A stretch of DNA of 64,000 bases, from NCBI RefSeq assembly GCF_030464365.1, contig NZ_VCYI01000001.1, positions 124,001 to 188,000 on the forward strand, given 5' to 3'. Numbering within the stretch: position 1 is the first letter of the stretch; each line of letters starts with the position of its first letter. Below the pieces are notes generated by a model. That model saw nothing but the letters and a program-made list of their open reading frames with translations. It had not been told where the DNA came from and ran no database searches. Below, one piece after another: positions 32,926 to 35,133 of this stretch. The translations under genes and the position numbers were made by a program. The stretch comes from Methanoculleus methanifontis (lineage in GTDB: Archaea > Halobacteriota > Methanomicrobia > Methanomicrobiales > Methanoculleaceae).

Positions 32926-32935
32926 TTTTATACGT
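32926..32935 (+). promoter_or_regulatory. TATA box of the rubredoxin-TPP enzyme operon
   Basis: CATTTTTATA at 32926-32935 predicts a start near 32957. The leader of about 25 bases contains AGGAG before ATG 32982. Confidence 0.55.
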
Positions 32936-32981
32936 GGAGGAGGTTACGGCCCGGCGGAGCGATCTTAGGAGCGTGGACGGT

Positions 32982-33179
32982 ATGGCACGATGGGTCTGCA
33001 GTGTCTGTGATTACGAGTATGTTGAGGAAGCGGGAGACCCGGCAGCCGGTATCCCGCCGGGTACACCGTTTGAGGACATCCCCGCCGACTGGCGGTGTCC
33101 CCGCTGTAGCGTGGGAAAGGAAGCGTTCGTGCGGGCCGGCGAAGAAGAGGTGGAGACGAATGACGAAGACTACCTCTGA
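32982..33179 (+). CDS. Rubredoxin
   Basis: A 65-residue rubredoxin with the two iron-binding Cys-x2-Cys knuckles (VCSVCDYEY and CPRCSVGKE) and the usual PPGTPFEDIPADWRCP between them. The C-terminal tail is extended and acidic. Rubredoxin shuttles single electrons, often to oxygen or superoxide reductases. Its last 20 bases overlap the start of the TPP enzyme gene, so the two are made together. ATG 32982 follows AGGAG and starts at the normal family position. Confidence 0.94.
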   Translation: MARWVCSVCDYEYVEEAGDPAAGIPPGTPFEDIPADWRCPRCSVGKEAFVRAGEEEVETNDEDYL

Positions 33180-34779: not shown

Positions 34780-34839
34780 GGTCTTTCTCCCCGATCCCCG
34801 GCGAGCGCCGGTGGGACACGTCACGCCGTTCACCCGAAA

Positions 34840-34849
34840 TCTATAAGTA
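34840..34849 (+). promoter_or_regulatory. TATA box of the short 34.9 kb transcript
   Basis: TCTATAAGTA at 34840-34849, preceded by a purine-rich CGAAA, predicts transcription start near 34870. Confidence 0.55.
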
Positions 34850-34881
34850 TCCTGCAACTGTATGAAAGGCCGAGGGTAGAT

Positions 34882-34995
34882 GTGAACATCCCGGTCATGG
34901 CCGCGCAGCCTGCGAGGCCTGTGCCGGGCAAGCGCGGATCTCCGGATGTCGATCCGGGTGGGAGCATGGGTATGTCGTTCTTCGCTCCACGCTAA
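34882..34995 (+). CDS. Candidate 37-residue protein, or structured small RNA, in a complete short transcription unit
   Basis: Between a TATA box (34840-34849) and a hairpin-T5 terminator (35009-35030) lies a frame with GAGGG (34872-34876), GTG start at 34882 and TAA at 34993-34995. The product begins MNIPVMAAQPARPVPG and ends MGMSFFAPR; most third positions are G or C, as in neighbours. The same interval can also fold into successive hairpins: 34879-34882/34887-34890, 34891-34894/34924-34927, 34935-34940/34951-34956 and 34958-34965/34984-34990. I cannot say which reading is right. No gene is otherwise present in 34780-35133. Confidence 0.45.
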   Translation: MNIPVMAAQPARPVPGKRGSPDVDPGGSMGMSFFAPR

Positions 34996-35008
34996 AGGGT
35001 CCCGAGAG

Positions 35009-35030
35009 CCCGTTAATCGTACGGGTTTTT
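35009..35030 (+). terminator. Terminator hairpin of the 34.9 kb unit
   Basis: CCCGT (35009-35013) pairs with ACGGG (35021-35025), followed by five T at 35026-35030. Confidence 0.7.
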
Positions 35031-35133
35031 GGGGTAAACTTGCGGCGAACCGGATCCGCTCCGGTTCACCGTTCTTCTTGTGGCCGCCCGTCGGCCGAAT
35101 GTTTTGCCGTTCCAAAAGAGTGGTGGGGTTGCA

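What the first reader, a model, noticed from the sequence alone, without database searches (positions are those of the whole stretch)
34840..35030. Complete short transcription unit: 37-residue protein or structured RNA
A TATA box, a GAGGG site, a GTG-TAA frame of 37 codons with high third-position G/C, and a hairpin-T5 terminator lie in order within 190 bases. The same bases fold into four successive hairpins before the terminator. It sits between a TPP-enzyme gene and aquaporin, with no other gene.
Basis: seen in the sequence. Interest (0 to 1): 0.6.

Follow-up and report, generated by a model that had tools for sequence, protein, structure and literature searches.

The report
New structured RNA gene in Methanoculleus
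Between two ordinary genes of a methane-producing archaeon lies a separate small gene for a roughly 205-base folded RNA, not a protein; it is conserved in most sequenced species of the genus Methanoculleus, was found in no other genus searched, and matches no catalogued RNA family.

Summary
The window lies in a Methanoculleus genome. Homologues occur in 23 of 35 Methanoculleus genomes, always just behind the same TPP-enzyme gene, and convincingly in no other genus searched. The 37-codon frame is intact in 11 of 23 homologues, and differences among those fall equally on the three codon positions (341/366/358). The helices are kept instead: 93% of pair cells against at most 49% in slid controls, 10 pairs with compensatory changes, mean folding z -3.5. 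The 'hairpin-T5 terminator' is wrong: T5 occurs in 1 of 23 and is an arm of an internal helix. In one genome the upstream gene is a pseudogene while RNA and promoter are intact, so this is an independent gene. No Rfam match; RNase P and SRP RNAs lie elsewhere. Best reading: a new intergenic regulatory RNA of the methanogen sRNA kind. Expression, targets and mechanism are not shown.

The parts
34834..34849 (+). BRE/TATA promoter CCGAAATCTATAAGTA
   Evidence: Conserved in homologues at 29-30 nt before GAGGG; the only exact match to CCGAAAYYTATAARTA in the genome, one other with 1 mismatch
34872..35079 (+). noncoding RNA gene, whole predicted transcript (start predicted, not measured)
   Evidence: Alignment of 23 homologues; folding z mean -3.5; core model match 34872-34999, 142 bits
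34872..34887 (+). conserved 5' motif GAGGGUA-N-AUGUGAAC, partly unpaired
34890..34928 (+). hairpin P2, variable in sequence, kept as a stem
   Evidence: 4 pairs with compensatory changes
34935..34942 (+). conserved GCGGAUCU joining segment; GCGGA may pair with the P6 loop (proposed pseudoknot)
34942..34957 (+). hairpin P3, CCGGAU-GUCG-AUCCGG
   Evidence: 97% of cells paired, mostly invariant
34958..34992 (+). hairpin P4, GUGGGAGC / GCUCCACGC
   Evidence: 97% of cells paired
   Evidence: 3 pairs with compensatory changes; T5 in 1 of 23
35043..35071 (+). hairpin P6 with conserved loop UCCGC
   Evidence: 93% of cells paired; arms fully replaced but hairpin kept in L053
35072..35079 (+). pyrimidine tract TTCTTCTT, likely transcription end
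   Evidence: Kept after P6 in the alignment except in L052
34882..34995 (+).

Best explanation
A single-copy, independently transcribed noncoding RNA gene of the genus Methanoculleus. Shown by comparison: its own conserved BRE/TATA promoter, a ~205-nt body of five hairpins supported by compensatory changes, no coding selection, and constant placement behind the TPP-enzyme gene. Inferred: transcription from about 34872, ending after hairpin P6 in the UUCUUCUU tract. Inferred and weaker: it works in trans as an intergenic regulatory sRNA, its conserved and partly open segments (5' GAGGGUA-N-AUGUGAAC, the GCGGAUCU segment, the P6 loop) pairing with mRNAs to change their translation or stability. 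RNA gene rather than protein: about 0.93; trans-acting antisense regulation: about 0.45.
For: Homologues in 23 of 35 genus genomes; structure kept in 93% of cells, 10 compensatory pairs, 0 of 500 shuffles reach the covariation score; mean z -3.5; promoter kept at fixed distance; frame not selected; RNA and promoter intact where the upstream gene is a pseudogene; methanogen precedents sRNA154 and sRNA41 (PMC5867862).
Against: No transcript data. No conserved complementary target of the 5' motif was found. The RNA is absent from 12 of 35 genomes, so it is dispensable in the genus. No genome-wide target prediction could be made.
Confidence: 0.6

Rival explanations
1. A structured RNA that serves as a scaffold or sponge for a protein (for example an Lsm, L7Ae or RNA-modifying protein) and not as an antisense RNA.
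For: Strong conservation of loops and joining segments, stable fold, no conserved antisense target.
Against: No C box or TGATGA element in any homologue; no known protein-binding motif recognised; nothing tests it directly.
Confidence: 0.25
2. A 37-residue protein is made from the GTG frame behind the GAGGG site.
For: Frame open in 11 of 23, GTG and GAGGG invariant.
Against: Frame broken in 12 of 23; no excess of third-position or synonymous changes; no Pfam match.
Confidence: 0.02
3. A conformational switch: the 5' GUGAAC and GCGGAUC pair with GUUCAC and GAUCCGC of P6, opening the P6 hairpin and changing transcription end or activity.
For: 96% of cells can pair; the two folds lie within about 4 kcal/mol in roughly 16 of 23 homologues.
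Against: Little covariation beyond shuffles; clearly disfavoured in L017, L019, L020, L021; no gene downstream on that strand to control.
Confidence: 0.08
4. The conserved stretch acts only as the end of the TPP-enzyme transcript (3' UTR and terminator).
For: Always directly downstream of that gene on the same strand.
Against: Own conserved promoter between the two; kept where the TPP gene is a pseudogene; TPP gene occurs without it.
Confidence: 0.05

Closest known systems
Methanosarcina mazei intergenic sRNAs sRNA154, sRNA41 and sRNA162 (review PMC5867862)
   Same: Intergenic RNA of a methanogen with stable hairpins, conserved within a genus
   Different: No recognisable shared sequence or structure is claimed; targets and expression known there and unknown here
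Archaeal C/D box and H/ACA guide sRNAs
   Same: Small noncoding archaeal RNAs
   Different: No C box in any homologue and no conserved box pair; five hairpins and about 205 nt
Archaeal RNase P RNA (RF00373) and SRP RNA (RF01857)
   Same: Stable structured archaeal RNAs of a few hundred bases
   Different: The genome's own copies lie on contigs C10 and C9; no Rfam match here

Membership tests
Intergenic trans-acting sRNA of methanogens (kind of sRNA154/sRNA41) | Own promoter and gene between protein genes | tested here: met
Intergenic trans-acting sRNA of methanogens (kind of sRNA154/sRNA41) | Conserved stable secondary structure without coding function | tested here: met
Intergenic trans-acting sRNA of methanogens (kind of sRNA154/sRNA41) | Expressed as a discrete small transcript | not testable with these tools
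   No RNA-seq data available
Intergenic trans-acting sRNA of methanogens (kind of sRNA154/sRNA41) | Base-pairs with target mRNAs | tested here: inconclusive
   Only the 5' motif was searched for complementary sites; none conserved
Any Rfam family (release 15) | Score above the curated threshold | tested here: not met
C/D box guide sRNA | C box RUGAUGA with D box CUGA | tested here: not met
   C box in 0 of 23
H/ACA guide sRNA | ACA box 3' of a hairpin and a kink-turn | tested here: inconclusive
   ACA occurs somewhere in 18 of 23 but at no conserved 3' position in the alignment; no conserved kink-turn seen by eye
RNase P RNA / SRP RNA | Match to RF00373 / RF01857 | tested here: not met
   Genome copies are elsewhere
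Small protein gene | Frame kept and third-position changes in excess | tested here: not met

The most novel reading that the evidence does not exclude
A new class of structured archaeal RNA with a long-range contact (P6 loop to the GCGGA segment) that works as a protein-bound or conformational regulator and not as a simple antisense sRNA, confined to Methanoculleus.
Probability: 0.2. Interest if true: 0.6.

Novelty: new member of a known kind. Interest (0 to 1): 0.42.

Why it matters
The methanogen sRNAs with known function met here are from Methanosarcina; three library searches aimed at Methanoculleus, Methanomicrobiales and RNA motifs turned up no report of a regulatory RNA from Methanoculleus. 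A ~205-nt RNA with a covariance model and a defined set of genomes with and without it can be tested directly and could seed a new RNA family entry.

Tried and rejected
Protein reading: rejected on frame and codon-position tests. T5 terminator: rejected, present in one genome only. Short blastn matches elsewhere in the genomes: brief and at scattered query positions, treated as chance. Exact pattern hits in records titled Deltaproteobacteria and Acidilobaceae: not matched by the covariance model, chance. Second hit in G016 (26.6 bits): sequence lacks the conserved motifs. G102 hit at E 0.005 (26.6 bits over 67 nt): judged chance, not followed up. Homologues behind the TPP gene in other genera: none, best 13.7 bits. 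Antisense targets of the 5' motif: none conserved.

Full report
OBSERVATION. The neighbours are confirmed by Pfam (TPP_enzyme N, M and C; MIP); NCBIfam gives the TPP protein only below-cut-off matches to pyruvate oxidase and acetolactate synthase models. Rfam finds nothing.

HOMOLOGUES. blastn over 61 genomes finds the stretch strongly in 21, all of the window's genus. Named records with the 5' motif include Methanoculleus chikugoensis L21-II-0, M. sediminis S3Fa and sp. MH98A, which places the window in Methanoculleus. A covariance model of the core adds two divergent members, L052 and L053. The improved model finds 23 of 35 genomes of the genus and no convincing match in the other genera among 232 genomes of the class. 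The core is single-copy in six genomes checked by pattern.

RNA, NOT PROTEIN. Eleven of 23 homologues keep the 37-codon frame. Among these, pairwise differences fall 341, 366 and 358 on codon positions 1, 2 and 3, and the synonymous share is not higher than in the other two frames. The other 12 have frameshifts or early stops. The fold is kept: all 23 fold better than dinucleotide shuffles, mean z -3.5. A 43-pair structure (P2 to P6) pairs in 93% of cells, against 29-49% when slid by 1-3 columns; 10 pairs have changes on both sides, and no shuffle of 500 reaches the covariation score. Part of the advantage over slid versions is expected because the structure was derived from these sequences; the compensatory pairs are the firmer point.

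ENDS. The TATA box lies 29-30 nt before GAGGG in the 20 homologues measured, which by usual archaeal spacing puts the start at or within a few bases of GAGGG (inference). The conserved end is hairpin P6 followed by a pyrimidine tract. In L053 the arms of P6 are wholly different (GATGGA/TCCATC), yet hairpin and tract remain. U-tracts help archaeal termination (PMC8716108, abstract), which fits.

INDEPENDENCE. In G023 the upstream TPP gene is broken (residues 197-449 missing, frame change near 140) while RNA and promoter are intact. In G008, G009 and G018 the TPP gene runs straight on to aquaporin with no RNA. On a tree of the TPP protein the presence is patchy, best read as ancestral presence with repeated loss (single-gene tree, some weak nodes).

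HIGHER STRUCTURE. The P6 loop UCCGC is complementary to the conserved GCGGA before P3 in about 95% of cells, against 41% on average over positions, but a segment of P4 scores as high. In L053 the re-made hairpin still shows UCCG in its loop. Alternatively the 5' GUGAAC can pair with GUUCAC of P6; this fits 96% of cells with hardly any covariation and is energetically poor in several homologues. Both are proposals, not results.

FUNCTION. Nothing here shows function. The most likely is an intergenic regulatory sRNA: confined to a genus, dispensable, own promoter, stable hairpins with conserved and partly open segments. Precedents are M. mazei sRNA154, which stabilises some mRNAs and masks the ribosome site of another, and sRNA41, which masks ribosome sites (PMC5867862). 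A search for sites complementary to the 5' motif found none conserved, so a protein-binding role remains a serious rival. A C/D guide, RNase P RNA and SRP RNA are excluded.

VERDICT. A real and apparently undescribed RNA gene of a known general kind; solid as a conserved structured RNA, open as to how it acts.

Noticed in passing
L108 (G023:C1:1883300-1887500), about 1219-2042: The TPP-enzyme gene of genome G023 is a pseudogene (large internal deletion and a frame change), while the RNA behind it and the aquaporin gene are kept.
   Followed up: partly
window 34880-34885 and homologues: GAGGG is followed 4-5 nt later by NTG-TGA (ATG in 20 homologues, GTG and TTG in one each), which reads as a start codon directly followed by a stop codon; probably chance, unexplained.
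   Followed up: no
G000:C11:34878-34891, - strand: An exact complement of the RNA's 5' motif (GTTCACATCTACCC) occurs once elsewhere in the window's own genome, not in the other seven genomes searched; gene context not examined.
   Followed up: no
window 32934-33179, + strand: An 81-residue frame with two CxxC pairs (WVCSVCDYEY...WRCPRCSVGK) that looks like a rubredoxin lies just upstream of the TPP-enzyme gene.
   Followed up: no
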